DNA of 64,000 nucleotides from Jeotgalibacillus aurantiacus (GTDB taxonomy: Bacteria > Bacillota > Bacilli > Bacillales > Jeotgalibacillaceae): NCBI RefSeq assembly GCF_020595125.1, contig NZ_JACNMS010000003.1, forward strand, positions 310,001 through 374,000, read 5' to 3'. Shown in pieces: positions 6,460-59,990 of this stretch (position 1 is its first letter; each line of letters opens with the position of its first letter). A program made the translations under genes and the position numbers. The notes below the pieces were generated by a model. It saw nothing but the letters and a program-made list of their open reading frames with translations. It had not been told where the DNA came from and searched no databases.

Positions 6460-6660
6460 ATTCCATCACTGCGGTCAGTGATTCATTCGTTTGAAAATGT
6501 CATTCCCTCTTATAAAAAATGGATTCCTTCTTTCTGGAAATTAATTCGATCACATGCACACCGTTACGAAATTTTTCCTTCATTACAAATGCTGAATTCC
6601 CTCATTCACAATCAGGAACCCTTCACTATAAATGATAATTCCATCAATACCACCAACCCC
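6460..6660. repeat. 21-bp lattice array A1 (core ATTCCNTC)
   Basis: Degenerate tandem units of 21 bp. The core ATTC(C/A/G) starts at 6460, 6481, 6502, 6523 and 6544, then after a 52-bp step at 6596, 6617 (as AACCC) and 6638. The rest of each unit is variable and A/T-rich. The unit CCTTCTTTCTGGAAATTAAT is shared exactly with array A2 at 11718-11737. It occupies most of the gap between the SDR gene and the response regulator. No convincing gene lies in it. Function unknown. Confidence 0.75.
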
Positions 6661-6721
6661 CATTTGCCGCGAAGAGAGCATGACTTGTGGACAAAGTTAC
6701 CGCCGCGTCAAAACGTCCTCA

Positions 6722-6754
6722 CTTCACCTGAATTTCACACAAAGCTGATACAAT
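6722..6754 (+). promoter_or_regulatory. Promoter of the response regulator operon with TTCAC direct repeat
   Basis: TTCAC occurs at 6723 and 6734, 11 bp apart, followed by TACAAT at 6749-6754. The same block, TTTCACACAA then 6 nt then a -10 box, occurs upstream of the FixH-like gene at 9436-9467. Direct repeats with 11-bp spacing next to the -35 position are typical of OmpR-class binding sites, so autoregulation is inferred. Confidence 0.6.
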
Positions 6755-6787
6755 GGAAGAAAATGATTGAAAAGGCGGGGCATTTCG

Positions 6788-7465
6788 ATGGTGAAGGCGG
6801 TCGTTTTGGTAGTAGAGGATGAACAGCCGATGCGTGAGCTGATCAGCTCCTTTTTACGCGATGACGGATATCAGGTATTAGAGGCGGGTGATGGAGCAGC
6901 AGCTTTGCAGGTCCTGGCGCAGCATTCACCCGATTTAATCATTGCGGATATTATGATGCCGTTTATGGACGGATTTGAATTGATAAAAGAAGTAAGAAAG
7001 TCATCTGAGCTGCCTTTTATTTTCCTCTCTGCACGAGGAGAAGAGTGGGATAAGGTGAAGGGATTGCGTCTTGGTGCGGACGATTATATTGCCAAGCCGT
7101 TTCATTCAGGGGAGCTGATTGCCCGGGTGGAAACGGTTCTTCGGCGTGCAGGAAAACAGCTGAAGCTCAATATACTGAAAGCGGGAAAGATTGAGCTGGA
7201 TCCTGAGTACAGAGAGATCATGAATAACGGCGTTCCTGTCACGCTAACGAAAAAAGAATTCGATCTGCTTTCTCTGCTGATGCAGGAAAAAGGAAGAACG
7301 GTTTTAAGAGAACGGATTATGTTTGCTGTATGGGGACCGGATTATCCAGGATCTGACCGGACGGTAGATACGCACGTGAAGACATTGCGCATGAAGCTCG
7401 GCAGTCAGGGAGAACTCATTAAAACAGTTAGAGGTACAGGGTACAGGCTGGAGGATTCTCAATGA
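6788..7465 (+). CDS. OmpR/PhoB-family response regulator
   Basis: A 225-residue two-domain regulator. The receiver domain has the acidic pair in VVEDE, phospho-acceptor D54 in ADIMMP and K103 in AKPF. The C-terminal winged helix includes LTKKEFDLLSLL and a VRGTGYRLE wing. The start chosen follows AAGGCGGGG and matches the usual receiver-domain length. It overlaps the histidine kinase gene by 4 bp (ATGA). The kinase and a SCO copper chaperone follow in one operon. Shared promoter repeats here and at 9436-9467 suggest it controls both its own operon and the FixH-like gene. Confidence 0.9.
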   Translation: MVKAVVLVVEDEQPMRELISSFLRDDGYQVLEAGDGAAALQVLAQHSPDLIIADIMMPFMDGFELIKEVRKSSELPFIFLSARGEEWDKVKGLRLGADDYIAKPFHSGELIARVETVLRRAGKQLKLNILKAGKIELDPEYREIMNNGVPVTLTKKEFDLLSLLMQEKGRTVLRERIMFAVWGPDYPGSDRTVDTHVKTLRMKLGSQGELIKTVRGTGYRLEDSQ

Positions 7466-8856
7466 AGCAGTTGAATTTCAGCAGAAAAATCCTGTTGCTT
7501 TTGCTTGGAAGCATTGCTGTGACGCTGATCAGTGCATTTATATTCCTTCATTTTTCTTATCGTGACTTATATTTAACGACTGTGAGAGAATCTGTGGAAT
7601 ATCAGGGACAGCGGACTGCTTCTCACTATCATTCCGGTGAGCTTTCTGAGGAAATCATTGAGAAAATTCACTGGTATAATGTCGTTTCTGAATACGAGGT
7701 CCTTGTGGCTGATAACCTGGATGAATTGAATACTTCCTTTCCGTATCAAATAGGGGATGAGAGGCTGATTGAAGAGGCGGATCGCGCTTTTCTGGAGAGC
7801 GGCCGTTCCATTATGAAGGAGGGCTATGTGGAAGCATTTAACCGTGAAGTGATCGGGGCAGTATATCCGATTACGGATGGAACGTCACCCGTCGGTTATA
7901 TTTATATTTTCGTTCCCCTTGAAGGGCTTGCGCAGGTGTTTGGCAGCAGTATTCCATGGCTGATTGGCATGGCACTGGTTTTCTTTTTGCTTATCAGTCT
8001 GCTGGTGAATCAGATCAGAAAATCATTATTTAAACCGCTGCTGGCGATTCAGGATTTCTCTAAAAGTGTCTCGATGGGCAGCTATCGCCAGCGTCTTGAA
8101 GTCAGGCAGCTCGATGAAATCGGTCAGGTTTCACAGGCGCTGAATCAAATGACTCAAACGCTTGAAGTAGAAGAGGAGCGCAAAAAAGAATTTTTGTCCA
8201 ACATTGTGCATGAGGTAAGAACGCCGCTTACCTACATTCAGGGCTATACGGAGCGGCTGAAAAAAGCGCCAGAGGCTGAAAAAGAGGTGCTTTTATCCAC
8301 AATTGAAAGTGAGGTCGGGAGAATGAACCGGCTTCTGTCGGATTTGGTGGAGCTGAACCGTCTTCAGGAAAATCAGCTGACGTTTGATCTTCAGCCGATC
8401 GTTGCGGCAGAACTTTTATACGAAACGCTTGGACTTTTCTCTATTTTAGCGAAAGAACGCGGGCTGACTTTTGAGATAGAGGCTGATGAAGAAGTGATCA
8501 TGCTGCAGGATGAAAAACGGCTTCAGCAGGTGTTTTATAATGTCATTGAAAATGCAGTGAAATATTCTCCTGAAAATAGTGTAATTCAGATCTTGCTGAA
8601 AGAGGTTAAGGATTCAGTGCAAATTGAAGTGGTCAACGAAGCGCCACAGTTAACAAAAGCTGAAAAGAAACGTATTGGAGAACGCTTTTACCGGGCAGAT
8701 CGGGATCGCAACAGAAAAACAGGTGGAACAGGACTGGGTCTTGCGATTGTAAAAGAAATCGTCCGGGTACAGGGTGGCCAATGGCTGATTGATGCAGATG
8801 TGGATCAGCTGTTTACCGTCCGGATTATGCTCCCGAAGGAAGGAATGGCACAATGA
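7462..8856 (+). CDS. Membrane sensor histidine kinase
   Basis: A 464-residue sensor. There is one membrane segment near residues 10-30, an extracytoplasmic domain of about 130 residues and a second membrane segment near 165-185. HAMP follows, then HisKA with phospho-acceptor H250 in IVHEVRTPL. The HATPase domain has the N box VIENAVKYS and the G box TGGTGLGLAIV. It forms a two-component system with the preceding regulator and overlaps the following SCO gene by 4 bp. That context suggests copper status or respiratory redox state as the signal, but no metal-binding motif was recognised in the sensor domain. Confidence 0.9.
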   Translation: MKQLNFSRKILLLLLGSIAVTLISAFIFLHFSYRDLYLTTVRESVEYQGQRTASHYHSGELSEEIIEKIHWYNVVSEYEVLVADNLDELNTSFPYQIGDERLIEEADRAFLESGRSIMKEGYVEAFNREVIGAVYPITDGTSPVGYIYIFVPLEGLAQVFGSSIPWLIGMALVFFLLISLLVNQIRKSLFKPLLAIQDFSKSVSMGSYRQRLEVRQLDEIGQVSQALNQMTQTLEVEEERKKEFLSNIVHEVRTPLTYIQGYTERLKKAPEAEKEVLLSTIESEVGRMNRLLSDLVELNRLQENQLTFDLQPIVAAELLYETLGLFSILAKERGLTFEIEADEEVIMLQDEKRLQQVFYNVIENAVKYSPENSVIQILLKEVKDSVQIEVVNEAPQLTKAEKKRIGERFYRADRDRNRKTGGTGLGLAIVKEIVRVQGGQWLIDADVDQLFTVRIMLPKEGMAQ

Positions 8857-9404
8857 AAAAATGGATATTACTAATGACCGTTTTACTATTAACTGCATGT
8901 GGCGGGGAGCCTGCAGGGGATCCTGTCAATGCCTTCAGTTTTACTGATCAGCAGGGCAATGAGTTTGGAACAGAACAGCTTGCGGGAAAGGTCTGGATTG
9001 CCGATTTCATTTTTACGAACTGCGATACGGTTTGTCCGCCGATGACCTATAAAATGGCTGATATACAGGCGCAGCTTGAAGAAGAAGGACTTGAGGCTGA
9101 AATCGTATCCTTCAGTGTAGATCCTGAAATTGATACTCCTGAAGTGCTGCAGGATTATCTTGCTCAGTTCACAGACAATCAGGACAACTGGCATGCGCTC
9201 ACCGGCTACAGCCAGGCTGAGATTGAACGTTTCGCGCTGGATGAATTTCAGACACTTGTCAATAAACCCGAAAATACCGATCAGGTGCTGCACGGCGTAA
9301 CATTTTACGTGATGGATCAGGAAAGCAGGATTGTAAACGAGTATAACTTTACGGAAGAAGACGTCGTGGATAAAATCATTGCTGATGTCAAACGCATACA
9401 GTAA
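8853..9404 (+). CDS. SCO1/SenC-family copper chaperone lipoprotein
   Basis: A 183-residue lipoprotein: signal peptide ending LLLTAC with C16 as lipidated cysteine, then a thioredoxin-like domain. The copper ligands of SCO proteins are present: C57 and C61 in TNCDTVCPP and H147 in VLHGVTF. SCO proteins deliver copper to the CuA centre of cytochrome c oxidase on the outer membrane face in Firmicutes. It is translationally coupled to the histidine kinase gene, which links the two-component system to oxidase assembly or copper supply. Confidence 0.9.
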   Translation: MKKWILLMTVLLLTACGGEPAGDPVNAFSFTDQQGNEFGTEQLAGKVWIADFIFTNCDTVCPPMTYKMADIQAQLEEEGLEAEIVSFSVDPEIDTPEVLQDYLAQFTDNQDNWHALTGYSQAEIERFALDEFQTLVNKPENTDQVLHGVTFYVMDQESRIVNEYNFTEEDVVDKIIADVKRIQ

Positions 9405-9435
9405 TTATAGACAATCTGTGAAGAGTGAAGGCATT

Positions 9436-9467
9436 TCACTTACATTTCACACAAGGGGTCTATAATA
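9436..9467 (+). promoter_or_regulatory. Promoter of the FixH-like gene, matching the regulator promoter
   Basis: TTCAC at 9436 and 9447 (11-bp spacing) is followed by TATAAT at 9462-9467. Sixteen bases separate TTTCACACAA's first T from the -10 box, exactly as in the promoter at 6722-6754. The shared layout points to co-regulation by the response regulator. Confidence 0.6.
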
Positions 9468-9498
9468 AAAGTATCGTTAAATAAAGGAGATTTTTTGA

Positions 9499-10038
9499 AT
9501 GAAGAAATATTCATTTTTACTAATTGGTGCTCTGACATTGCTGCTTGCAGCCTGTACAGAGGAAGAGACTGTCATCAATAATGAAACGCCACAAATGGTT
9601 GAGGTAGATATTCAGCTGCCGGATTCAATTGAAGAAAACACAGTAGTCCCACTGCGCGCTGAGATTACGCAGGGTGGTGAGCCGGTAGAGGATGCCAATG
9701 AGGTTCTTTTTGAAATCTGGAATGATTCGGCGGGAACAGAAAGTGTCCGACATGAAGCTGAGCATGTAGGCGACGGCATTTATGAGCTTGAGCACACGTT
9801 TGAGGAAGTGAGTGTCTATACGGTTCAGGCACATACAACAGCGCGTGATATGCACGTCATGCCCAAAATGCAGTTTAACGTTGGAGAGCCTACTGAAGAA
9901 CAGATCGAGCAGGCGGCTGTAAATGCAGAAAATCAGGAAAGTAACCATATGCATGGAGAAGATTCTGAAGAGCATAGTGAGGAATCACATGATGATGCTG
10001 ATGAAGGGCACGATCATAAAAAAGCGATATATTTTTAG
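9499..10038 (+). CDS. FixH/YtkA-like lipoprotein with histidine-rich tail
   Basis: A 179-residue lipoprotein: signal peptide with lipobox LLAAC (C19), then an immunoglobulin-like FixH/YtkA domain of about 100 residues with a V-x-L-R-A-E-I-T-x-G-G-E-P-V pattern. The acidic tail is rich in histidine (HMH, HSEESH, HDH near the end) and could hold metal ions such as copper. FixH-type proteins are linked to oxidase maturation or copper handling. It has its own promoter with the same repeats as the regulator operon and a strong terminator. A joint role with the SCO protein is inferred. Confidence 0.75.
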   Translation: MKKYSFLLIGALTLLLAACTEEETVINNETPQMVEVDIQLPDSIEENTVVPLRAEITQGGEPVEDANEVLFEIWNDSAGTESVRHEAEHVGDGIYELEHTFEEVSVYTVQAHTTARDMHVMPKMQFNVGEPTEEQIEQAAVNAENQESNHMHGEDSEEHSEESHDDADEGHDHKKAIYF

Positions 10039-10044
10039 GGATTG

Positions 10045-10070
10045 AAAAAACAGCCTCTGTGCTGTTTTTT
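10045..10070 (+). terminator. Terminator of the FixH-like gene
   Basis: AAAAAACAGC and GCTGTTTTTT form a 10-bp perfect stem around six bases, with a T run. Confidence 0.85.
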
Positions 10071-10175
10071 TATTTCTCTTAATAAATGGTTCAAACAAAT
10101 TCATAAAAAAATTGATCCATTTCTCTCGTTGCTCCGTTTCCTGCCTAAACGGTTAAAACAAGGAGAGTGAGCAAC

Positions 10176-11495
10176 ATGAAAAAACAACTTAAAAAAGCAG
10201 CCGCTCCAATTTTGGGAATGGCGCTATTAATGCCAACTGCAGCATCAGCAGAAGAAACAGGATCAGGCGCAGATCTTCGCGCTGACCTTGACTACTTATT
10301 ATCAGAGCATTTCGTACTGGCAACTAACGCAATGGTGAAGGATTATCTGGATGCGCCGGATGAAGAGGCGTTTATTCAAGCGCTTGATCAGAATGCAGCA
10401 GATATGACGCCTGCCATTGCTTCTATTTATGGTGAAGAAGGGGCTGCTGAATTTGAGCGGATCTTCCGTGGACATAATGATTACACGGCGGATATCGTAG
10501 CAGCTGCACAGGCTGAAGATGATGCAGCCCGAGCGGCAGCAGAGGAAGAAGTAGAGGCATTTGTTACTGAGTTTTCAGCATTTTTAGCTACAGCAACTGA
10601 AGGTAACCTTCCACAGGATGCAGCAGAGGAAGCAATTCGTGCTCATGAAGAAGACGTACTTGCCTTCTTTGACGCTTATGTGGCAGAAGACTATGTAGGT
10701 GCCTTTGAAGCATTCCGTGAAGGCTATGATCATATGTTTGTGATTTCTGAAGCATTATCCGGTGCGATCGCAACACAATATCCCGATCAATTTGGAGGAG
10801 ACGTATCATCAGCCGCATCTGATCTCCGTTCAACGCTGAACAGTCTGGCTGGAGAGCACCATGCATTAGCGGTAATGGGTATGATCAGCGGTATTGAAGG
10901 AACTGCAGATTATGATTTTGTTACATGGGCAGAAGATATGCATACACAGGATTTTAAAGCAGCGATTGCTTCTATTTATGGTGATGAAGCAGCCGGTCAG
11001 TTTGAAAGTGTATGGACTGCTAACCATATTGAAGCAGAAGGTGCTTTAGCGGCAGGTCTTGCTGCAGGTGATGAAGAAGCAGTGAATACGGCTAAAGAGC
11101 AATTTGCAACATTTGCTAACGACTTTGGCGCATTCCTTGGCGCTGCAACAGAGGAAAACCTGCCAACTGAAGATGCACAGGCAGCTGTTTTAGGTCATGA
11201 AGAACTGAAACAGGAAGCAGCACAGGCTTATGCAGATGGAGACTATGACACGGCAGTGATGAAGCTGCGTGAAGGCTACCAGTACATGTATGGTGTTGGA
11301 GAAGCATTAGGTGGAGCCATTGCAGCCCAGTTCCCTGATCAGTTCGGCAGTGAAATGCCTGGCGATATGCCGAATGCAGGCTTAGGTGGAAGCCAGACAG
11401 AAGGAAATCCCGACATGGCACTGTGGACCGGACTTGGCGTGATGGCTCTTGCAGCAGGCGGCGTATTCGCAGTTCGCAGAAGAACGCAGAACTAA
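10176..11495 (+). CDS. Secreted membrane-anchored protein with two tandem helical repeats
   Basis: A 439-residue exported protein. A signal peptide (KKQLKKAAAPILGMALL, cleavage near ASA-EE) is followed by two homologous repeats of about 175 residues. Each has LLSEH/LAGEH near its start, an AIASIYG(E/D)E motif, an FL-x-A-AT-E-x-NLP motif, and ends with GAIA-x-Q-(Y/F)PDQFG. The C-terminus is a hydrophobic segment followed by RRR, like a sorting signal but with no LPXTG. Similar Bacillus repeats are sometimes labelled copper amine oxidase, a label I could not support from motifs. The start follows AAGGAGAG. Its position beside SCO and FixH genes may mean a metal-related role; function unknown. 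Confidence 0.7.
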   Translation: MKKQLKKAAAPILGMALLMPTAASAEETGSGADLRADLDYLLSEHFVLATNAMVKDYLDAPDEEAFIQALDQNAADMTPAIASIYGEEGAAEFERIFRGHNDYTADIVAAAQAEDDAARAAAEEEVEAFVTEFSAFLATATEGNLPQDAAEEAIRAHEEDVLAFFDAYVAEDYVGAFEAFREGYDHMFVISEALSGAIATQYPDQFGGDVSSAASDLRSTLNSLAGEHHALAVMGMISGIEGTADYDFVTWAEDMHTQDFKAAIASIYGDEAAGQFESVWTANHIEAEGALAAGLAAGDEEAVNTAKEQFATFANDFGAFLGAATEENLPTEDAQAAVLGHEELKQEAAQAYADGDYDTAVMKLREGYQYMYGVGEALGGAIAAQFPDQFGSEMPGDMPNAGLGGSQTEGNPDMALWTGLGVMALAAGGVFAVRRRTQN

Positions 11496-11510
11496 AGATG
11501 TTTGATGAGG

Positions 11511-11539
11511 CCGGGACAGGTGATGCTGTTCCGGTTTTT
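11511..11539 (+). terminator. Terminator of the tandem-repeat protein gene
   Basis: CCGGGACAG and CTGTTCCGG form a 9-bp stem (one G-T pair) followed by TTTTTT. Confidence 0.8.
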
Positions 11540-11670
11540 TGTTTGGAGAGCGGAGTTTGACGCGGAAGATTGATGATGTGGTGCATAGGGGTGTTTTCGC
11601 GGATGGATTGGGTTGGGTAAATGGTGTTTGAAATCATAAATAATTTCAGAAGACAAAGGTGCCGATGAGA

Positions 11671-11790
11671 ATTCCTTCATTGCTGTGAGTTATTCAATCG
11701 TTTGAAAAATAAATCCCTTCTTTCTGGAAATTAATTCATTCGTTTGAAAAAATGATCCCATCACTCCGCAGATCCATCTTCATAACTAAA
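11671..11790. repeat. 21-bp lattice array A2 (core ATTCCNTC)
   Basis: Core words ATTCC, ATTCA, ATCCC, ATTCA, ATCCC and ATCTT start at 11671, 11692, 11713, 11734, 11755 and 11776, all exactly 21 bp apart. It shares CCTTCTTTCTGGAAATTAAT and TTCATTCGTTTGAAAA-type units with array A1, 5 kb upstream. It lies in the convergent gap between the surface protein and the acyl-CoA synthetase genes, directly before array G1. No gene is seen in 11540-11930. Confidence 0.75.
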
Positions 11791-11938
11791 ATCATTTTGC
11801 CTAAAAGAATGCTGTTTTGACCCCGTTGGTGGATTTCCTAATGAACGGGGAGCTTGGTCCATGGTATGTCGCGTGCTTAGTAGAGCAAAAATCATCTAAC
11901 GACAGATTTTTTGATGTTATGAACAGATTAAGAGGTGA

Positions 11939-12060
11939 TAACAACAGAATTGAAAGACCTGTCAACGTTAATTTCAGTGCAATCGACAAAATAGACTCTA
12001 CTCAACAGTCAATCGACAGAAAAAGTCTATCTGTCGACAGAAGTGGTCGTGTTTATCACA
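11939..12060. repeat. 21-bp lattice array G1 (core TCAACAG/TCGACAG)
   Basis: Cores ACAACA (11941), TCAACG (11962), TCGACA (11983), TCAACA (12002), TCGACA (12013) and TCGACA (12034), then TCACA at 12056. Steps are 21, 21, 19, 11, 21 and 22, so spacings stay near multiples of half a unit. The core matches array G2 at 59773-59990. It occupies the rest of the gap before the acyl-CoA synthetase terminator. Confidence 0.65.
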
Positions 12061-12116
12061 TAAAAAGACAGGATAATGATATGAGAATGAGCGCTGACTC
12101 GCGTGAGAAACAGACA

Positions 12117-12143: not shown

Positions 12144-12155
12144 TCCTTTAAAAAA

Positions 12156-26210: not shown

Positions 26211-26335
26211 GTTTGTGAGGTCAGGCGTGGAGTTCGTGAGGTTGAGGGGGAGTTTTGTGAGGTTAGTGTGAGAGTTCGTCAGTTTGGAAGGTGAATTCGT
26301 GAGGTCAAAAAATTTTTCGTGAGTTCAGTATCATT
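26211..26335. repeat. 21-bp lattice array B1 (core GTGAGGT)
   Basis: GTGAGG or close variants start at 26215, 26236, 26257, 26278 and 26299 (all 21 bp apart) and 26319 (20 bp). Each is usually preceded by TTCG or TTTT. The array runs into the last codons of the NERD gene. Array B2, on the other side of that gene, is its inverted counterpart, and both have AGTTCAGTATCATT-type sequence on the gene-proximal side. Confidence 0.75.
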
Positions 26336-27319
26336 TGACCTATGCTCCAACATCGCTAAAGTGTTGCCGGGATATCGATAATAAGTGCCGCCAAATTTTC
26401 TAAAGGCAACTAAATCATTATTAATAAACGCTCGCCTTGCTGTATCCGCCGACTCAATCCTGAGAAAATCCCGGCCCTCCTGATTGGTCAACTGACTTTT
26501 CATAAACGTCAAATACACAAAAAGAGATTCACAAACCGTTTCTGGAGCAGAGAGGTTGCAGTGAATACACCGGAACCGCTTGGCAATCCAGTGCTGAGAC
26601 AGCTTTTCACAAGCAGGACACCAGATGCCTGGGTGTATATCTTCCTTCTGGATTTTAAAGTGGTCTAACGTACTGAAAATTTCTTCTGGAAGGAGAGATT
26701 TTTGGATTTGTTTTATGACCTTTGGAATGTCAGATTTGGGATCAGTATTTTGCTTTAGAAGATCTCTCAATTTCATCTGTAGTCGTTCGCTCCTAATCAC
26801 GTTTTTCGGAAGATTAGAATCATCACCAACAGATTCAAGAAAAACATCGTGGTGAGAAAACACAATTAGTGTGTAAATAGGCAGCGTGACTCCCCATTTT
26901 GAAAAGAGATCCTGCAATCCTTCACGGTGTCGTTCTGCTTGAAGTACAGGATGAAGATAGGCTTTGATGGTGCCGTCAGGATAAATGCGGTACATTTGCT
27001 CGTTGCGGAGGTCCAGCCGGATGTGACCTTTCATGTGTTTAGTCTCAATGATGAGGGCAAAGGACGGGGTAAGCAGAAGGTGATCCATTTGCATTCTAGC
27101 GTTTTCAAATGGAAGTAGGAGGTTTTCTCCGAGGTGAATGTCATCTTGATTTAGGGATTGAATGAGTCTCGTTACTTTTTTCTCGCCAAATTCTCCAGCT
27201 TTCAGGAGTGAAGCTTCTTCGAGAAGCTCGAGTCTGGCTGGATGATGAATTGGAAGATGCCTTGCCAGAATTTCATAGGCGCTGGCGCGAAGGGAGGGGG
27301 TTCGTTTGTGGAAAATCAA
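26279..27319 (-). CDS. NERD-domain protein with zinc-binding segment
   Basis: A 346-residue cytosolic protein. Residues ~40-160 match the NERD (nuclease-related) domain: KAGEFGEKKV, MQMDHLLLTPSFALIIETKH and a later QAERHREGL. The D-x-n-E-x-K arrangement resembles nuclease active sites. Near residue 230, C-P-A-C and later C-I-H-C could bind zinc. The last ~17 codons are read from array B1, so the C-terminus appears to have been built from repeat sequence. The gene is bracketed by inverted arrays B1 and B2. Biological role of NERD proteins is largely unknown. Confidence 0.75.
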   Translation of the reverse strand: MIFHKRTPSLRASAYEILARHLPIHHPARLELLEEASLLKAGEFGEKKVTRLIQSLNQDDIHLGENLLLPFENARMQMDHLLLTPSFALIIETKHMKGHIRLDLRNEQMYRIYPDGTIKAYLHPVLQAERHREGLQDLFSKWGVTLPIYTLIVFSHHDVFLESVGDDSNLPKNVIRSERLQMKLRDLLKQNTDPKSDIPKVIKQIQKSLLPEEIFSTLDHFKIQKEDIHPGIWCPACEKLSQHWIAKRFRCIHCNLSAPETVCESLFVYLTFMKSQLTNQEGRDFLRIESADTARRAFINNDLVAFRKFGGTYYRYPGNTLAMLEHRSNDTELTKNFLTSRIHLPN

Positions 27320-27387
27320 AAAAGATCAGCTCCATTTCTATTTGGTTTACATTATTATACACTTTGAGGATTTTGATATATAGGTCT

Positions 27388-27528
27388 AATGATACTGAAC
27401 TGACAAACTTTTTTAGGAACTCACGAATCAGGCCCGCGAACTCACGAAAGTGTTGTGCAACCTCACAAACTTCACCGCGAACCTCACAAACTCCCCGCCG
27501 AACCTCACAACCCCCATTTTGTCCAACC
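27388..27528. repeat. 21-bp lattice array B2 (core ACCTCAC, inverted copy of B1)
   Basis: CTGAC at 27400 then CTCAC at 27420, 27441, 27462, 27483 and 27504, with steps 20, 21, 21, 21, 21. AATGATACTGAACT at 27388-27401 is the exact inverse of the sequence beside array B1 (near 26320-26335). Including the single 20-bp step next to this flank, the two arrays are mirror images about the NERD gene. It lies between the NERD promoter region and the sucrase gene. Confidence 0.75.
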
Positions 27529-35779: not shown

Positions 35780-35916
35780 TTTGATCTCTCCGTTCATCAA
35801 AGGAGCATGATGAACTGGGACATTTCTTTGAAATCAAAAGATTGTCAGTCAAAATCATGAAGTGCTTCTGCTTTCGCAGGGGGTTTTTTATGAGGGTTTT
35901 TAAATGAACGGATAGA

Positions 35917-36014
35917 GTTGTTGAATAAGTGTGTAACGTTGTGTAATAGCCTTAATGAGTTGTTTAATAATCTAAAAAAGTTGTCAAATAAAGCTGGAAA
36001 GTTGTCAAATCCCC
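35917..36014. repeat. 21-bp lattice array D (core GTTGT(T/C)NAATA)
   Basis: GTTGT starts at 35917, 35938, 35959, 35980 and 36001, exactly 21 bp apart each time. Several units continue as TTAATAA or CAAATAA. It sits between the tail of stem-loop element copy 1 and the amidohydrolase terminator, in a convergent gap. Array E at 40319 has the same core and is likewise attached to the tail of element copy 2. Confidence 0.75.
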
Positions 36015-36033
36015 ATTCTAATCATGAAGAAAC

Positions 36034-39856: not shown

Positions 39857-40012
39857 AAAAAGCCTCTTCCTGCAAAACAAGAAGAGGCTGCTTATCGCAA
39901 ACACTCTTCTCATCTGTCAGGCAAATCGCCTGCTGGAGTTGGCACGGTGCTTATTAATAAGTCCGCTGCCGAGGTATCATAGGGCCAGTCCCTCCACCTC
40001 TCTGGATAAGAA
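39857..40012 (-). promoter_or_regulatory. SAM-I (S-box) riboswitch with terminator
   Basis: Minus strand: the S-box core CAGAGAGGTGGAGGGACTGG, then CCCTATGATACCTCGGCAGC, then GTGCCAACTCC and the AGATGAGAAG block, in the canonical order. The terminator hairpin AGCCTCTTC/GAAGAGGCT followed by TTTTTT lies at about 39857-39890. High SAM should stop transcription of metN-metI-metQ and the M20 gene. A sigma-A promoter (TTGACA at 40065-40070, TAAAGT at 40042-40047, 17-bp spacing) lies just upstream. Confidence 0.95.
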
Positions 40013-40419: not shown

Positions 40420-40531
40420 GGGAAGGATTTCCCCGGAGACTCCTACGGCGGAGGAGGGACAGGTGAAACCGTTGTGCGTAGCACAAGGGGTTCACCGCCC
40501 GGCCGTGGAAAGCGAAGGGGAAATCCTTCCC
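40420..40531. repeat. Stem-loop repeat element copy 3, inverted relative to copy 2
   Basis: GGGAAGGATTTCCCC (40420) and GGGGAAATCCTTCCC (40517-40531) are perfect 15-bp arms bounding 112 bp. The interior matches the reverse complement of copy 2 (GACTCCT, GGGACAGGTGAAACC, GGTTCACCGCCCGGCC). Its arm sequence is entirely different from copies 1 and 2 yet complementary to itself. It ends 29 bp from the siderophore permease stop and may act as its terminator. Confidence 0.8.
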
Positions 40532-45711: not shown

Positions 45712-45830
45712 CGTTTGGTCAGCGTTGATTTGACCACCTTTTCGGAGTATTTAACCACTCTTTTAGGTTATTTAACCACTCTTGAGCAACGTTCGACCAC
45801 TTTACGAAGTCATTTAACCACTCATCCTCA
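45712..45830. repeat. 21-bp lattice array C (core TTTAACCAC)
   Basis: ACCAC starts at 45733, 45754, 45775, 45796 and 45817, each exactly 21 bp apart, within TTTGACCAC, TTTAACCAC (three times) and TTCGACCAC. The other ~12 nt of each unit vary. It ends two bases before the DnaA-box repeat copy 1. Between the reductase terminator and hmo, no gene was seen. Confidence 0.8.
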
Positions 45831-45831
45831 C

Positions 45832-45899
45832 TTATTCACATGTGGATAAAAGAATACACTGTGTAATCCCGTGGATATGTGCACAAAGTCTGTGTATAA
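45832..45899. repeat. DnaA-box repeat copy 1
   Basis: TTATTCACA and TGTGGATAA abut as inverted DnaA-type boxes (45832-45849). A third box, TGTGTATAA, is at 45891-45899. The first 55 bp are nearly identical (two differences) to copy 2 at 58223. All three boxes match TTATNCACA or its complement. A role in DnaA binding is inferred. Confidence 0.65.
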
Positions 45900-51190: not shown

Positions 51191-51229
51191 ATTATAGGCT
51201 AAAGGTCCAAAAAAGAAGGTGGAAACAAA

Positions 51230-54581: not shown

Positions 54582-55764
54582 TATAGAAAAAAGATTTTCC
54601 TATTATGAACAGCTCAATTGGCTTAAAGAACATCGAAACAGCGGGATTGCTGTCAGGCTTGAGGATACGGGGGAATGGCTTACTTTTCTACTGTATGCGA
54701 GAAAGCATCGACTCAGCCTGTTGCCGCTTCATAAGGATGAAACAGCTGATCGGTCCCAACGCCTCTCCGACAATGCGGGTTGTTCCGTTCTAATAGATGG
54801 AACGATAGAAGAAGCCCGCGTGCTGAATGAAAGTGCTGGGAAAACAGCATATGGCCTCCATTTTTTCAGTTCCGGAACAACAGGTGAACCAAAAAGAATC
54901 AGCCGGTCATGGGAGGAGATCGAAACAGAGCTGAAAAGCTATCGGATGGCTTTTCCACTTTCTGAAGAAACGCGTTCCATTGTCGCGTGCCCGGTTACAC
55001 ATGCTTATGGCATGCTGTGCGGTTTTCTGGCAGGTATTGACCGCGGAACCACACCCGTTGTCATCACAACATTGAATCCGTCTTATGTGCTCTCAGCGGT
55101 GCGTCAATATCCTCACAGTATTTTGTATGCAGCACCTGCCTATTTACATGCGATCGTCCGTTTATCAAAGGAAAAGATTCCAGCTGTTATGATGTCCGGA
55201 ACGTCTTTGCCTGTTAAATGGCTGGAACAGATTAAACAAAAATCCACTCATGTGCTTCAGCAGTATGGCTGCTCTGAAGCGGGATGTGTGTCGATCGCTG
55301 ATCATGTTAAGGAGCCGGGCCATATCGGAAAAACGCTGCCGCACGTGCAGATCACCGGTGGTACAGCATCAAATCCTGCTGAGATGATCATTCATCTAAA
55401 AGATAAAATGATCCCATCAGGAGACCTCGGCTGGCAGGACGCCAATGGTGATTGGCATTTTTCAGCCCGGCTGGACGATATGATCAATGTCGCCGGCCGA
55501 AATGTGTATCCGGCGGATGTTGAGGAAGTCCTCCTGCGACACGAAGAGGTGGAAGAAGCGGTCGTCTTTAAAAAAGGAGATGACTGGAGCGGGGAAAGAG
55601 TATGTGTCTGTATCAAAGGAACGAGGGCTGAAGGTGATGTGAAGGCTTTTTGCCGTCCGTTTCTCAGCTCCTATCAGCTGCCAAAAGAGTGGCATTTTGT
55701 TGACACGATTCCTACTCTTCCAAATGGAAAAATCAGCCGCAGGCAGTTAGGAGTGATGTTATGA
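54544..55764 (+). CDS. asbC: AsbC-like 3,4-dihydroxybenzoate adenylating enzyme
   Basis: A 406-residue ANL-family adenylation enzyme, shorter than acyl-CoA synthetases and matching AsbC length. It has FFSSGTTGEPKR near residues 106-117, YGCSEAG near 241-247, LDDMINVAGRNVYPADVEEVL near 313-333, and K in NGKISRRQ near 398. It would activate 3,4-dihydroxybenzoate and load it on AsbD. It overlaps asbB and asbD. Confidence 0.88.
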   Translation: MFQVDQKLYSTADIEKRFSYYEQLNWLKEHRNSGIAVRLEDTGEWLTFLLYARKHRLSLLPLHKDETADRSQRLSDNAGCSVLIDGTIEEARVLNESAGKTAYGLHFFSSGTTGEPKRISRSWEEIETELKSYRMAFPLSEETRSIVACPVTHAYGMLCGFLAGIDRGTTPVVITTLNPSYVLSAVRQYPHSILYAAPAYLHAIVRLSKEKIPAVMMSGTSLPVKWLEQIKQKSTHVLQQYGCSEAGCVSIADHVKEPGHIGKTLPHVQITGGTASNPAEMIIHLKDKMIPSGDLGWQDANGDWHFSARLDDMINVAGRNVYPADVEEVLLRHEEVEEAVVFKKGDDWSGERVCVCIKGTRAEGDVKAFCRPFLSSYQLPKEWHFVDTIPTLPNGKISRRQLGVML

Positions 55765-56027
55765 AAACAGCAAAACAACTGGAGCAACTGGTCGTGAGGT
55801 TGATTGTCGAAACTTTTAACCGGCATCATCCAGAAGAAATCGATACAAGATCTGATTTACAGGATGATCTCGGTCTTGATTCGGTCATGATGCTTCATCT
55901 GATTGTAGAGATAGAGCTTACAACTGGACTTGAAATCCCCGATGAATGCCTGAGTGTGGAAAATCTTAAAACCGTTCAGTCACTCGTTCAACTGATGGAA
56001 GAACGTCAAATGGAGGAAATCAAGTGA
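55761..56027 (+). CDS. asbD: AsbD-like aryl carrier protein
   Basis: An 88-residue carrier protein with the phosphopantetheine attachment motif DLGLDSVMMLHL, serine near residue 41. It holds the 3,4-dihydroxybenzoyl thioester between AsbC and AsbE. ATGA overlap with asbC and GTGA overlap with asbE. Length matches known AsbD. Confidence 0.9.
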   Translation: MKTAKQLEQLVVRLIVETFNRHHPEEIDTRSDLQDDLGLDSVMMLHLIVEIELTTGLEIPDECLSVENLKTVQSLVQLMEERQMEEIK

Positions 56028-57001
56028 TAAAAGTGCATTGTTTTGTCAGTTGTGTATGTGAAGCAATCAAACGTCACCATGAGGCTGACCACCGTCCCTT
56101 TTATTTTGGTGTGTGGGATGCGGACTTTGCCGTAACGGATGACTATCAGCTCCGTTACCATGCAGAAAGCGTCTCTCATGATTTCTTTAAAAGCTGGTAT
56201 GAAACGCTTTACAAAATCGAAATCATAGAATGGTTTGATAAAGCTAAGCCAAAACAAGACAACGTTCAGTCCTTTCTTGAATTAATTGATCATAAACCAA
56301 AAGACCGCAATGTCATGGTCATGCTTGATTTATCAAGAATTCCATCGCGGGAAAATAAATTTCATGAACCTGAATTCCCACATTACGTCATGATCGAAAA
56401 AACGGACGATCCTGACCAGTGGATGATGTATGATCCGGATTTCAGATGGGAAGGTGTTCTCGCGAAAGAGGAAGTATTGCATGCGATTGAGTCGCCAGTT
56501 GCACAGGGTGGTTTTTATTTTGATGCAGCCGGGATTCAGCCTGCTTCAGATGACGCAGTCCGTGCTTACTTCGGCACATGCCTGAAGGAAAATCAAAATC
56601 CGTTTACAGAAGCCATTAAATCCATTGTTGAAGCTTATTCAACAGGTGATATGCGGAAGCACCGTGAACAATTAAGTGATGCGATTCATCAGATTCCGGT
56701 GCTCACGATTCGCAAATATGCCTACGAACATGCTTTTGCTTTTTTCAGTCATGCGCTTAGTATTTCTGAGGATCAGTTTGAACGCTGGTGTGATGAGATT
56801 GAAGAGCTGATCCAGGGTTTTCGGGCACTCCATTTCCATGCGATCAAATACGCTAAAACAGGCTCTGACAAAATACTTGCTGATCTTTATGAAAGAATCG
56901 ATCGGCAGCATCATCGAGAATACGCAATCAAAAAGTCTTTATTAACATGTTTCAGAAAATGGGAACAACAAACTTCCACGATAAAGGAGTACGCAGGATG
57001 A
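56024..57001 (+). CDS. asbE: AsbE-like petrobactin aryl transferase
   Basis: A 325-residue protein matching AsbE in length and operon position. AsbE transfers 3,4-dihydroxybenzoate from the carrier to a spermidine amine. An early cysteine (HCFVSCVCEAIKRH, residues ~4-17) and HEPEFPHYVMIEK near 116-128 may form the active site, by analogy with butirosin-type acyltransferases. Translation starts at GTG after AAATGGAGG, overlapping the asbD stop. It overlaps asbF by 4 bp. Confidence 0.85.
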   Translation: MIKVHCFVSCVCEAIKRHHEADHRPFYFGVWDADFAVTDDYQLRYHAESVSHDFFKSWYETLYKIEIIEWFDKAKPKQDNVQSFLELIDHKPKDRNVMVMLDLSRIPSRENKFHEPEFPHYVMIEKTDDPDQWMMYDPDFRWEGVLAKEEVLHAIESPVAQGGFYFDAAGIQPASDDAVRAYFGTCLKENQNPFTEAIKSIVEAYSTGDMRKHREQLSDAIHQIPVLTIRKYAYEHAFAFFSHALSISEDQFERWCDEIEELIQGFRALHFHAIKYAKTGSDKILADLYERIDRQHHREYAIKKSLLTCFRKWEQQTSTIKEYAG

Positions 57002-57813
57002 AACTGTCACTTTGTACGATCAGCTATCGCCATCACCTTAGATCGCTGCCCAATATCGCTTCCTTTGCAACATCCAACGGTTTTGATTCCCTTGAATTGT
57101 GGGGCATCCATGCGAAAAACCTTAATCCGCTCTGTGACCCTTCTAAGCTAAATGGAATCAAAATCAGTATGATCAGTGACTATTTGCCGCTGGATGGGAA
57201 CCTCAGTGATTTATATAAAAAAACGGATGAGTTAATCGCGCTTGCAGAGAAGTGGGAGACTTCAAGGATCAGGACTTTTGCGAGCACAAAAGGAAGTGAG
57301 TCCGTTCTGCCTGCTGAAAGGAAAGAAATCACAGGAAGGCTGAGAGATATTTGTACCCGGCTACCGGAAGGACAAAAACTCCTGATAGAAACGCATCCGG
57401 GAACACTCGCGGATACTCTGGACTCTACTTTGAAATTAATCGAAGAGGTGAGACATCCTGCATTCCACATCAACTTTGACGTGCTTCACGTATGGGAGTC
57501 AGGAGTTGATCCAATAGAGGCATTTAATCAACTTGAACCCTACATTGACCATTTGCATTTAAAAAACATAGCCAACCGTTCTCTTCTGCACGTGTTTAAT
57601 CCCGCAAACGTCTATGCAGCAGCCGGCAGCCGGGAAGGAATGGTCCCATTATTTGAAGGAGCAGTTGATTACACACACTTCTTCGAACAACTCGGGTCCA
57701 GACTCGATTCACTCACAGGGAGCCTTGAATGGTTCGGCCCGGATCCTGACACCGTGTTAAAACATGACAGCCAGCTCATTCAAAACGCAGGAAAATTGAT
57801 GAGTGTAAAATGA
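56998..57813 (+). CDS. asbF: AsbF-like 3-dehydroshikimate dehydratase
   Basis: A 271-residue TIM-barrel enzyme of the AP-endonuclease-2/xylose isomerase fold. SLCTISYRH begins the barrel; metal ligands are expected in LLIETHPG, HINFDVLHVWESG and HLHLKNI. AsbF converts 3-dehydroshikimate to 3,4-dihydroxybenzoate, the catechol precursor of petrobactin. The ATG overlapping the asbE stop, after AAAGGAG, is the likely start. Last gene of the operon, with a hairpin 20 bp downstream. Confidence 0.9.
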   Translation: MKLSLCTISYRHHLRSLPNIASFATSNGFDSLELWGIHAKNLNPLCDPSKLNGIKISMISDYLPLDGNLSDLYKKTDELIALAEKWETSRIRTFASTKGSESVLPAERKEITGRLRDICTRLPEGQKLLIETHPGTLADTLDSTLKLIEEVRHPAFHINFDVLHVWESGVDPIEAFNQLEPYIDHLHLKNIANRSLLHVFNPANVYAAAGSREGMVPLFEGAVDYTHFFEQLGSRLDSLTGSLEWFGPDPDTVLKHDSQLIQNAGKLMSVK

Positions 57814-57831
57814 ATATAGCCCACCATATAA

Positions 57832-57868
57832 AAAAGTCTGCCAGGATTATGATCTTAGGCAGACTTTT
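57832..57868 (+). terminator. Terminator of the asb operon
   Basis: AAAAGTCTGCC and GGCAGACTTTT are perfect 11-bp arms. The T tract is short. The next ~85 bp hold nothing recognisable. Confidence 0.7.
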
Positions 57869-57953
57869 GACATACTCGTTTACAGGATGATGCTAGGTTT
57901 TCTCCTATAAATTAATGTAGATACTAGCGAATCATATGAATGAAGTAAGTGTC

Positions 57954-58004
57954 GTGTTTATCCCCTGAAACTCTTTTTTTAAAAGAGTTTCAGGGGATAA
58001 ACAC
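57954..58004. repeat. Perfect 24-bp inverted repeat (hairpin)
   Basis: Arms 57954-57977 and 57981-58004 are exact complements around a 3-nt TTT loop, beginning GTGTTTATCC and ending GGATAAACAC. There is no T tract after it, so an ordinary terminator is unlikely. It ends four bases before stem-loop element copy 4. Confidence 0.85.
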
Positions 58005-58007
58005 AAT

Positions 58008-58199
58008 GGGCCAGCGACATCCGAAGATTCCCTCGACAGAGAAGCGCCTGGTGAGACTGCGTAGCGCGTAGCATTAGCTGACTCACTGCGCGGCCTTAGA
58101 AAAGAGGGCTGCCTTTCGCCCTCGTTCAGCTTTGACTTATGACCTCGAGGGGCTAATCGCCAGAGCTGGACAAAAGGATGCGAAGGATGTCCCCGGCAC
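58008..58199. repeat. Stem-loop repeat element copy 4
   Basis: GGGCCAGCGACATCC (58008) and GGATGTCCCCGGCAC (58185-58199) are 15-bp arms with three mismatches, bounding 192 bp. The interior holds TTATGACCTCGAGGGGCTA, the reverse complement of a copy 1 segment, plus GGTGAGAC/CTCACTGCGCGGCC blocks. It lies between the asb operon and the DnaA-box repeat copy 2. Confidence 0.75.
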
Positions 58200-58222
58200 G
58201 GTTTCTCAACGTCCGTCCCAAT

Positions 58223-58288
58223 TTATTCACATGTGGATAAAAGAATACACTGTGCAATCCCGTTGATATGTGCACAAGTCCCGTGAAT
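58223..58288. repeat. DnaA-box repeat copy 2
   Basis: TTATTCACA and TGTGGATAA abut (58223-58240) exactly as in copy 1. About 55 bp match copy 1 with two differences. The third box of copy 1 is here CGTGAATAA, one base from consensus. It lies about 55 bp before the rRNA methyltransferase start. Confidence 0.65.
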
Positions 58289-58344
58289 AAAAGGAATCCT
58301 GATTTCTGATATGATAAAAGAAAAACAATCAGGAGCAAACAGAA

Positions 58345-59214
58345 ATGAAATTAAAGAAAAGAGAAGCAGCCGCACTCAGGATCCGGGAATCCTTTCCACA
58401 TTTAACATGCCCGGTCTGTCAGGAAAAGCTTACAGTGAACGAAACATCTCTCATCTGTACGAATCGGCATCAGTTTGACATTGCAAAAAATGGATCTCTC
58501 CATTTAATGAAGAAATCAGTCAAAACCAACTATACAAAGGAGCTGTTTCAGGCAAGACGATATCTGATGGATGAAGTCGGCTTTTTTCGACCGGTAACAG
58601 ATCAGATCGTTCATGTATTGCATGGGAAAAAAGAGTTAACCATTCTGGATGCAGGGTGCGGTGAAGGGACGCATCTGACGTACATTCTGAAAAAATGTAT
58701 AGAGAATCAATTCACAGGAATCGGGATGGACCTTGCAAAGGATGGTATCCAGACAGCGGCGAGCCATGATGAATCAGCATTGTGGATAACCGCGGACCTG
58801 GCAAAAGCCCCTGTGGAAAACGAATCCATTGATGTTATTTTAAATATTTTATCCCCGGCAAACTATCGTGAATTCAGCCGGTTATTAACAAAGAGTGGTC
58901 GGGTTATCAAGGTTGTCCCCAGGAAAGATTATTTAAAAGAGCTGCGTCACCATTACTTTAGTGAGGAATACTCAAAAGAAGAAACAACGGCAGCCTTTTA
59001 CGATCAATTTGATGTAGTGGACAAAATCACAGTGCAGCATACTCAACAGCTTGATCATGCGGGCATTAATGCTCTTGTCAAAATGACGCCGCTCAGCTGG
59101 CGTGCAGATCACGACAAGGTGCAATCATTTCTGGATAAAACAATGGCGGAAATGACAATCGATGTGGATATTTTAATCGGTGTGAAAAAAGTGGAGCAGG
59201 TGGTGTCAGAATGA
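58345..59214 (+). CDS. rlmA: RlmA-like 23S rRNA (guanine-N1) methyltransferase
   Basis: A 289-residue SAM-dependent methyltransferase. The N-terminal zinc finger has C-P-V-C and C-x3-H (residues ~23-44: LTCPVCQEKL, LICTNRHQFD), followed by LDAGCGEGTHL (motif I, residues ~104-114) and LNILSPAN. This layout matches RlmA(I/II) enzymes that methylate G745/G748 of 23S rRNA. The ribosome binding site is AGGAGC. It is followed by overlapping small membrane protein genes. Confidence 0.85.
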   Translation: MKLKKREAAALRIRESFPHLTCPVCQEKLTVNETSLICTNRHQFDIAKNGSLHLMKKSVKTNYTKELFQARRYLMDEVGFFRPVTDQIVHVLHGKKELTILDAGCGEGTHLTYILKKCIENQFTGIGMDLAKDGIQTAASHDESALWITADLAKAPVENESIDVILNILSPANYREFSRLLTKSGRVIKVVPRKDYLKELRHHYFSEEYSKEETTAAFYDQFDVVDKITVQHTQQLDHAGINALVKMTPLSWRADHDKVQSFLDKTMAEMTIDVDILIGVKKVEQVVSE

Positions 59215-59402
59215 AAATCATGATTCGGTTCTTTTTATATGCAACGATTTATTTTATTTTTGCACTCGTATGGGATCTTCTTTTGGCAGATTCGATAAAG
59301 TGGACAGTTAATCTGATACAGGCAGCCTTATTCAGTCTGCTGTTTACGTTGCTTTTATGGAATTTCGAATTGAAAAAACGCAGGAAAGAACAGCAATCAT
59401 GA
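59211..59402 (+). CDS. Small membrane protein downstream of rlmA
   Basis: A 63-residue protein with two hydrophobic segments (residues ~4-24 and 33-53) and a basic tail KKRRKEQQ. It overlaps rlmA by 4 bp and the next, broken, reading frame by 4 bp. Such tight packing supports it being real. Function unknown. Confidence 0.65.
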   Translation: MKIMIRFFLYATIYFIFALVWDLLLADSIKWTVNLIQAALFSLLFTLLLWNFELKKRRKEQQS

Positions 59403-59578
59403 AAAGACGTGCGTTTGGCGTGTATTCAGTCGTCTTTGGTTGATTGAGTTTATTCGATCTCATTCAGACTGGTGAAGTCGCTTTTGTAGTAAACCTTATA
59501 GCGGCAGCCGTATTTGCACTTGCGTATTACCTTGTGTGGACGAAAATGGGCTGGTTAAAGGGGAAATCTTCGGAGTGA
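59399..59578 (+). pseudogene. Small membrane protein gene interrupted by in-frame TGA
   Basis: A 60-codon frame starts with ATG overlapping the preceding stop (ATGA) and runs to TGA at 59576, but codon 15 (59441-59443) is TGA. The frame reads MKRRAFGVYSVVFG, stop, LSLFDLIQTGEVAF and a hydrophobic segment ending KGKSSE. One change (TGG to TGA) would explain it. The downstream part keeps membrane-protein character. No selenocysteine signal is evident. It could also be a sequencing error. Confidence 0.6.
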
Positions 59579-59596
59579 GTGCGAGGTGCGGAGAGG

Positions 59597-59715
59597 GTTC
59601 GCGAGATTTTGAGCGGGTTTCGGAGAATATTGAGCCTGGTTCATGAGATTTTGTGATATGTTCGCAAGATATTCATACAGGTTCGCACAATCTTACCGTT
59701 GTTTCATAAGATTGG
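59597..59715. repeat. 21-bp lattice array F (core GTTCGCGAGATT)
   Basis: TTC of the core starts at 59598, 59619, 59640, 59661, 59682 and 59703, exactly 21 bp apart each time. Units begin GTTCGCGAGATTTT, GTTTCGGAGAATAT, GTTCATGAGATTTT, GTTCGCAAGATATT and so on. It begins about 20 bp after the broken membrane protein gene. Confidence 0.8.
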
Positions 59716-59772
59716 GACCAATGACTTACTTGGCGATTTTTTCATGAATCAAAGATCGGGTGTTTTTATAGT

Positions 59773-59990
59773 TAACGACAGTTTTCACCCGGTTATGAAC
59801 GTTTATTGAAACGTTATCAACAGTTTGCATGTGCCTATTTACATTCATTATGCCGCTACCAACAAAATCAGCTGGTTCCGGGGCAGTCTATCAATATTAA
59901 TTACCTTTCTATCAACAGAATGAGCCGGCCGATCGACAGTAAGAGTCACTGGATCAACATCAGCACGTTTATGCACAGCATATCCACATC
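59773..59990. repeat. 21-bp lattice array G2 (core TATCAACAG)
   Basis: Core positions 59773, 59794, 59815, 59836, 59857 (21-bp steps), then 59889 (32), 59910, 59931, 59952 (21), then 59981 (29). Words include TATCAACAG, TACCAACA, TATCAATA, GATCGACAG, GATCAACA and TATCCACA. It shares its core with array G1 at 11939. The core is one base from a DnaA box in several units, and TTATGCACA (59969) is a full match. Confidence 0.75.

What the first reader, a model, noticed from the sequence alone, without database searches (positions are those of the whole stretch)
6460..59990. Many intergenic arrays share an exact 21-bp period but have different core words
Seen directly: at least nine arrays (6460, 11671, 11939, 26211, 27388, 35917, 40319, 45712, 59597, 59773) consist of degenerate units whose 5-9 nt core recurs at 21 bp with very little drift. 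In arrays A2, C, D and F every step is exactly 21. The remaining ~12 nt of each unit are variable, so this is not recent slippage. There are at least five unrelated core words. Twenty-one bp equals two turns of B-DNA, so all cores in an array face the same side. Inference: these are phased protein-binding arrays or a class of chromosome-organising elements whose period, not sequence, is conserved. I know of no named element with this design.
Basis: partly seen in the sequence, partly recalled or inferred. Interest (0 to 1): 0.88.

Follow-up and report, generated by a model that had tools for sequence, protein, structure and literature searches.

The report
Phased DNA arrays paired with nucleases
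Scattered between the genes of this Jeotgalibacillus bacterium are short ladders of DNA words spaced exactly 21 letters apart, and each word seems to belong to one particular nuclease-like protein whose gene sits between two such ladders, a partnership I could not find described.

Summary
The 21-bp arrays are real and genome-wide: in 864 kb of this Jeotgalibacillus genome, three-unit lattices form 125 clusters at lag 21 against 1-29 at other lags from 15 to 30. Several words belong to particular paralogues of a NERD-domain (PD-(D/E)XK-like) protein with a zinc ribbon and a C-terminal domain, whose gene lies between two arrays of that word. The window holds one such unit: ORF 26279-27319 between the arrays at 26211 and 27388. 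Of 67 NERD loci in 16 genomes, 23 have arrays on both sides, 37 on at least one, 30 on none. In 21 of the 23, a gene's own downstream array is the best match to its upstream array. Protein tree and word co-vary. At one locus two species carry different NERD alleles and flanking words, and array units elsewhere differ in the same direction (15 G>T, 0 T>G). Cores are conserved, spacers are not. Arrays favour convergent over divergent intergenic regions. The system works like REP/RAYT but from unrelated parts. Binding is implied, not shown; mobile, architectural or defensive function is open.

The parts
26279..27319 (-). NERD-domain protein (346 aa, TTG start): PD-(D/E)XK-like domain, zinc ribbon, C-terminal domain; proposed partner of the F4 word. 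Its last ~27 codons run into the cap and first units of the 26211 array
   Evidence: Pfam PF08378 E 1.1e-17; E46, D79, E92, K94 and C234, C237, C251, C254 invariant in 23 aligned proteins; ORF
26211..26336 (+). F4 array (GTTCGTGAGgTT), on the 3' side of the NERD gene, followed in-lattice by the cap GACCTAT at 26337
27388..27513 (-). F4 array on the 5' side of the NERD gene, inverted relative to 26211; cap AGACCTAT (minus strand) near 27370-27383
6460..6564 (+). F5 array (ATTCCnTCnTT), with a second short cluster near 6596-6650; proposed partner NERD outside the window at G000 C1:315538-316497
11671..11775 (+). F5 array with an order of unit types like that at 6460
11897..11985 (+). F3-type array (AACAGA words); proposed partner NERD at G000 C1:59294-60271
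35896..36021 (+). F2 array (GTTGTnnAATAA), six units, after a terminator-like stretch (my reading)
   Evidence: T-type in both species at the orthologous array
45712..45837 (+). F1 array (ATTTGACCACTCTTT; AGTGGTnnAATA on the other strand); proposed partner NERD at G000 C4:35158
59597..59722 (+). F6 array (GTTCGCaAGATTTTG), followed by cap GACTTAC at 59723
59771..59822 (+). F3-type array, short
59888..59962 (+). F3-type array (ATCAACA)

Best explanation
The arrays are the cognate DNA sites of a family of chromosomal NERD nuclease-like proteins. Shown: several word families go each with one NERD paralogue; the gene lies between two arrays of that word; more arrays of the same word lie elsewhere in the genome, with a bias to gene 3' ends; cores are conserved against spacers; words differ together with the NERD allele. 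Inferred: the C-terminal part (zinc ribbon plus the last ~80 residues) reads one core word per protomer; up to 5-6 protomers bind side by side on one face of the helix at a fixed 21-bp step; the conserved PD-(D/E)XK-like site can cut DNA at or near an occupied array. The most likely evolutionary logic is that of REP/RAYT: an inherited nuclease that maintains (and perhaps spreads) a genome-wide population of small extragenic elements that it recognises.
For: NERD assignment: (23 of 23 aligned members hit PF08378). Flanking arrays within 1 kb: both sides in 23, at least one side in 37 of 67 NERD loci. In the G000 sample 2 of 3 NERD genes and 3 of 753 other ORFs have arrays within 600 bp on both sides (Fisher p 1e-4); one of the 2 depends on array 27388, which lies under a spurious ORF call and was added by hand. 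Same word on both sides: median similarity 0.81 against 0.30 for mismatched pairs, own partner best in 21 of 23, 0 of 10000 permutations. Tree versus word: Mantel rho -0.235, p 5e-4, n=36. Abundance: F4 word 181 hits in G000 and 160 in G004 (both with an F4-flanked NERD), 5 in G006, 0 in 14 others, reversed control 0; GTGACC word 103 in G007. Allele switch at one locus: flanks 96% and 88% identical, NERD part 82%, zinc ribbon 52%, C-terminus 59%, flanking word AGTGGT in G000, AGTTGT in G004. Genome-wide: AGTGGT:AGTTGT hits 66:20 in G000, 33:43 in G004; 105 orthologous units in 21 arrays, G>T 15, T>G 0, 10 and 0 without the NERD locus; other core columns changed in 0-4% of units. Core 7.4% against spacer 22.8% divergence. 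Active-site-like and Cys residues invariant in 23. F5 NERD 89.0% aa identity between G000 and G004 against a median of 97.1% for 71 proteins.
Against: No binding or cutting was shown. 30 of 67 NERD loci have no array within 1 kb, some near contig ends: among them 9 of 13 in G094, five proteins of 173-191 aa and two of 637-643 aa. Orphan words: F2, F7 and F8 arrays occur in G000 but none of its five NERD genes is flanked by them; AGGTGAT arrays occur in G005, G007 and G008 where no NERD typed has that word. The GTGACC reversed control gave 4 hits in G094. With close relatives collapsed the tree-word correlation is weak (rho -0.11, p 0.042, n=27). No target-site duplication or clean empty site. 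The C-terminal part has no significant Pfam or PDB match; the AlphaFold model is unusable (mean pLDDT 38). Pattern hits overlap, so the 66:20 and 33:43 counts are not independent. The unit filter (>=6 of 8 core matches) lowers core divergence. 8 of 29 arrays had no orthologue in the G004 DNA fetched, which was chosen around pattern hits.
Confidence: 0.77

Rival explanations
1. Architectural or transcription-boundary elements: NERD proteins act as site-specific nucleoid or roadblock proteins at gene 3' ends and the arrays are fixed functional sites rather than mobile ones; cutting is rare or absent.
For: Arrays in 17/54 convergent but 2/65 divergent intergenic regions; cores conserved; several units differ by one substitution beside unchanged spacer in orthologous arrays, as selection for binding would give (in the array at C2:880151 some spacers differ too).
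Against: PD-(D/E)XK-like residues invariant in 23 of 23; arrays differ in presence and unit number between two close species; only 25 of 64 gene ends facing an array show a terminator-like hairpin before it by my simple finder.
Confidence: 0.35
2. Self-marking in a defence system: the NERD nuclease attacks incoming DNA that lacks arrays, or arrays hold it in an inactive store on the chromosome.
For: Nuclease-like domain with conserved site; fast divergence of the F5 protein; several paralogues per genome.
Against: PADLOC and NCBIfam give only weak matches. No modification partner was looked for. No relative on viral contigs (window protein), plasmids (F1 protein) or phages (window protein), one query each.
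Confidence: 0.12
3. Ends of DDE transposons (IS21, Tn7 or Mu-like), whose transposases are known (recalled) to bind tandem ~20-bp sites.
For: Tandem asymmetric sites; inverted flanking arrays in 7 of 23 loci.
Against: The gene between matching arrays is NERD in the 23 loci, but these loci were chosen by NERD and no search for DDE genes beside arrays was made; 16 of 23 pairs are direct, not inverted.
Confidence: 0.04
4. Ordinary tandem-repeat slippage or 7-codon coding repeats.
For: One orthologous array differs by exactly one 21-bp unit and others by 21-bp gaps; 70 of 82 arrays keep at least one open frame, so a stop-codon test does not exclude coding.
Against: Spacers differ from unit to unit while cores are kept, words match NERD paralogues, and simulations give almost none.
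Confidence: 0.02

Closest known systems
REP / RAYT (repetitive extragenic palindromes and REP-associated tyrosine transposases)
   Same: Chromosomal gene flanked by its cognate repeats; many more copies of the repeat in extragenic DNA; repeat and protein co-evolve; abundance follows presence of the gene; protein evolves faster than neighbours; orthologous genes stay in place while flanking repeats change (RAYT side from the abstract and section 7 of PMC2817692).
   Different: Protein is NERD with a zinc ribbon, not a Y1/HUH transposase; repeats are direct, asymmetric units at exactly 21 bp, not 20-40 bp palindromes; flanking arrays are direct in 16 of 23 loci where REPs flanking rayt genes are inverted.
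NERD domain proteins (PF08378)
   Same: Same domain, over the curated cut-off.
   Different: The one NERD study I opened (passages of PMC9040797) concerns the membrane protein SmdA and states that the importance of the domain had not been studied before in any bacterial protein; the passages seen mention no repeats.
Plasmid iterons (recalled, no call)
   Same: Several direct asymmetric repeats of about two helical turns bound by one initiator family.
   Different: Chromosomal, dispersed in many copies with many words, nuclease-like partner. Presence of replication initiators near arrays was not tested.

Membership tests
NERD (PF08378) | Match to the curated profile over its cut-off | tested here: met
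   65 bits against 22.1 for the window protein; 23 of 23 aligned proteins match
NERD (PF08378) | Nuclease activity | not testable with these tools
   E46, D79, E92 and K94 invariant in 23; catalysis not shown
REP/RAYT | Gene encodes a Y1 (HUH) transposase | tested here: not met
   NERD is the family found in the 23 proteins of A1. Two Y1_Tnp-like paralogues exist in the genome; the nearest array is some 3.5 kb away
REP/RAYT | Repeat is a short palindrome | tested here: not met
   Asymmetric words at 21-bp direct spacing
REP/RAYT | Gene flanked by two cognate repeats | tested here: met
   23 of 67 NERD loci on both sides, own pair best in 21 of 23; 30 of 67 have none, so it defines a subset of NERD proteins
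REP/RAYT | Repeat and protein co-evolve | tested here: met
   Mantel p 5e-4 (n=36), 0.042 (n=27); allele switch and 15:0 unit difference
REP/RAYT | Repeat abundance follows presence of the gene | tested here: met
   F4 and GTGACC words; the AGGTGAT word follows poorly
REP/RAYT | Repeats are mobilised by the protein | not testable with these tools
   Presence/absence differences between two species, no clean empty site
DDE transposon ends (IS21/Tn7/Mu-like) | DDE transposase gene between the ends | tested here: inconclusive
   NERD lies between matching arrays in 23 loci, but loci were picked by NERD; no DDE search was run
Known structured RNA families | Rfam match at the arrays | tested here: not met
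   Only a SAM riboswitch in the window, away from the arrays, at gathering thresholds

The most novel reading that the evidence does not exclude
A third kind of extragenic-repeat drive in bacteria: across an order of Bacilli, inherited NERD nucleases each own a private 21-bp code, keep themselves between two arrays of it, and hold large numbers of chromosomal arrays in register with their own changing specificity, so that swapping one protein allele rewrites array units around the genome.
Probability: 0.5. Interest if true: 0.94.

Novelty: categorically new. Interest (0 to 1): 0.9.

Why it matters
It gives a protein family of unknown role, with matches to my whole-protein model in 330 of 397 genomes searched in the order, a DNA partner and testable predictions. 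It explains a dense class of unannotated intergenic DNA. It offers natural pairs of protein and DNA variants from which a recognition code could be read, and a second, independent case beside REP/RAYT for asking why bacteria keep large populations of extragenic repeats.

Tried and rejected
One search used a wrong spacing (22 bp) and found nothing even in the own genome; it served only as an accidental control. Early PWM families drifted and merged words and were dropped for explicit patterns. Off-phylum hits of the F1 pattern were inspected: L109 and L110 are coding repeats; the Pedobacter, Bartonella, Desulfamplus and several MAG hits look like near-perfect tandem repeats and were left out. 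G058's ~1-kb composite intergenic repeats showed arrays nested among other repeats and no coding element. The empty-site search gave no clean boundary. Samples of 18-40 kb of G002, G003 and G010 and 20 kb of G012 and G095 showed no lag-21 intergenic cluster, too little to prove absence. PDB profile searches gave no convincing match. One search's array list included by hand four places hidden under ORF calls, one of which (27388) makes the window NERD two-sided. Literature searches: (open-access PMC library only; one search listed 25 of 31 papers, 10 of 101). From titles and abstract starts none joins NERD genes to intergenic repeats. Papers opened: PMC2817692 (outline with abstract, section 7) and PMC9040797 (passages).
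Full report
OBSERVATION. The arrays are there. With a fixed rule (at least 6 of 9 adjacent columns identical over three successive units) the window has 12 clusters at lag 21 and none at lags 20 or 22. In its intergenic pieces the count is 8 at lag 21, 1 at lag 17 and 0 at the other lags from 15 to 30; 200 first-order Markov simulations gave a mean of 0.12 and a maximum of 2 at lag 21. In 864 kb of the own genome (G000, 3.5 Mb; C1:1-400k, C2:600-920k, C3:250-394k including the window) lag 21 gives 125 clusters, 82 intergenic; other lags give 1-29 clusters, 0-6 intergenic. The 82 intergenic arrays have 3, 4, 5, 6 or 7 detected units in 31, 12, 22, 16 and 1 cases; with word-specific patterns 24 of 41 arrays show 5 or 6 units.

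ORGANISM. G000 carries no name. Its relative G004 (same genus) has contigs of the same lengths as Jeotgalibacillus sp. R-1-5s-1 records (152402, 371239, 30484, 44366 and 107488 bases), so the window is from a Jeotgalibacillus.

ANATOMY. Words in G000: F1 ATTTGACCACTCTTT, F2 TTATTTAACAACTTTT (a one-base variant of F1's core), F3 CTATCAACAGAAA, F4 TAACCTCACGAACT, F5 ATTCCTTCnTT, F6 GGTTCGCAAGATTTTG, F7 AAGTGTCCAAGCTG, F8 GAACGGTACAATTC. Within an array a core of roughly 10 nt is kept and the rest varies. F5 arrays repeat a similar order of unit types at different places, which suggests common ancestry. Of 18 GTTC-type arrays in G000, G004, G007 and G009, a distinct GACCYAT-like unit follows in the same lattice in 13 by my reading (9 in the very next unit, the others one or two units on), which gives the array a polarity.

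PLACEMENT. Of intergenic regions of at least 150 bp, arrays occur in 17 of 54 convergent, 31 of 178 same-direction and 2 of 65 divergent ones (convergent against divergent, Fisher p 2.4e-5; genes were called by a simple ORF rule). A terminator-like hairpin lies between stop codon and array at 25 of 64 gene ends facing an array, by a simple finder. Rfam sees only a SAM riboswitch in the window.

SELECTION. In 15 orthologous arrays of G000 and G004, core columns differ at 45 of 608 sites, spacer columns at 55 of 241 and intergenic flanks at 441 of 2617 (core against spacer p 2.6e-9). One orthologous array differs by exactly one 21-bp unit. Some arrays are found in one species only, without a clean boundary.

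THE PARTNER. Clustering 756 ORFs of the sample showed three paralogues of 319, 325 and 346 aa, each between arrays of one word: F5, F3 and F4 (the window ORF 26279-27319). Pfam places them in NERD. Across the 16 of 17 genomes with a PF08378 match, 67 loci were examined: 23 have arrays within 1 kb on both sides, 37 on at least one and 30 on none (9 of 13 in G094, five proteins of 173-191 aa, two of 637-643 aa, others; some near contig ends). In the G000 sample 2 of 3 NERD genes but 3 of 753 other ORFs have arrays within 600 bp on both sides, with one array added by hand as told above. In the 23 two-sided loci the gene's own downstream array is the best match to its upstream array in 21 (median similarity 0.81 against 0.30; 0 of 10000 permutations); 16 pairs are direct, 7 inverted. 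NERD loci with arrays on one or both sides also come from families f2, f32 and f47 and, in single loci, f3 and f4. The whole-protein model matches (E <= 0.001) in 330 of 397 genomes of the order and 116 of 135 genera; not every match need be full length. Three congeners without a match (G001, G003, G010) had no hit for the F1/F2, F4, AGGTGAT and GTGACC patterns; this is weak, since genomes with other NERD proteins lack these words too.

THE PROTEIN. In 23 aligned proteins G42, G45, E46, Q77, D79, E92, K94, G98, Q127, P147, G231 and four cysteines (234, 237, 251, 254) are invariant: in my reading a PD-(D/E)XK-like site followed by a zinc ribbon. The last ~80 residues have no significant Pfam or PDB match; I guess a helix-turn-helix-like domain, unproven. 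The AlphaFold model is not usable.

CO-EVOLUTION. On a NERD tree, protein distance and word similarity correlate (Mantel rho -0.235, p 5e-4, n=36; collapsed to n=27, rho -0.11, p 0.042). Word abundance in 17 genomes: F4 word 181 and 160 pattern hits in the two genomes with an F4-flanked NERD, 5 in G006, 0 in 14; GTGACC 103 in G007, 3-8 in G006, G008, G009 and G011, 0 in 12, with 4 reversed-control hits in G094; AGGTGAT is spread over eight genomes, some without a NERD flanked by that word.

A NATURAL EXPERIMENT. The F1 NERD of G000 and the F2 NERD of G004 are alleles at one locus (beside what I recall as a leucyl-tRNA synthetase gene, not tested): flanks 96% and 88% identical, but NERD part 82%, zinc ribbon 52% and C-terminus 59% identical, and the flanking arrays read AGTGGT in one and AGTTGT in the other. 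Two orthologue pairs that keep their word have a more similar C-terminus (F4 87%, F5 82%). Genome-wide, three-unit hits are 66 AGTGGT and 20 AGTTGT in G000 but 33 and 43 in G004. Of 29 F1/F2 arrays of G000 in hand, 21 had an orthologue in the G004 DNA fetched; among their 105 units the fourth core base is G in both 43 times, T in both 36, G>T 15, T>G 0, other combinations 11. Without the NERD locus G>T is 10 and T>G 0; other core columns differ in 0-4% of units. Several differences are single substitutions beside unchanged spacer. Arrays far from the gene therefore track its allele, which is hard to explain without recognition in trans.

MECHANISM. Shown: association, matching words, co-variation, core conservation, conserved catalytic-type residues. 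Inferred: binding of one protomer per unit on one face of the helix at a two-turn step, C-terminal specificity, DNA cutting. The logic resembles REP/RAYT on the points I could test except the nature of the protein, the form of the repeat and the mostly direct flanks. In-place unit changes favour selection for being bound over mere copying, so an architectural or boundary role is the main alternative.

NOVELTY. Within the searches listed under Tried and rejected I found no description of this pairing. The library holds open-access PMC papers only, so a report elsewhere cannot be excluded.

Noticed in passing
window 39907-40012 (-): SAM riboswitch (RF00162).
   Followed up: no
G000 C1:174756-175628 and C1:206023-206790: Two Y1_Tnp-like paralogues, the first confirmed as PF01797, with the look of RAYTs; any palindromic repeats of their own were not looked for.
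   Followed up: no
window 40424-40528 and G000 C1:22706-22800: Another intergenic repeat, GGACAGGTGAAACC...GGGTTCACCGCCCGG...GGAAAGCG, seen at both places.
   Followed up: no
L128 8772-9803 and related G058 loci: About 1-kb composite non-coding repeats that begin near GAGACTGGGACAAAAC and end near a TATCCCAGCCTC, holding a 21-bp array and ~119-bp repeats; copies roughly 80-95% alike.
   Followed up: partly
L192 2439-4334 (-), G000 C1:851004: NERD fused to a UvrD-type helicase with an F6-like array upstream; it may be the partner of the F6 word.
   Followed up: partly
window 1163-1215: Short 21-bp repeat (TTACATTATGCAAAAGATCAT, 2.3 copies) that fits none of the named words.
   Followed up: no
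window 26279-26360: The last ~27 codons of the window NERD gene coincide with the array cap and first array units; the G004 orthologue has the same extension.
   Followed up: partly
L109 and L110: Phage-like proteins with a 7-residue repeat (QLSN...) whose DNA mimics a 21-bp array.
   Followed up: no
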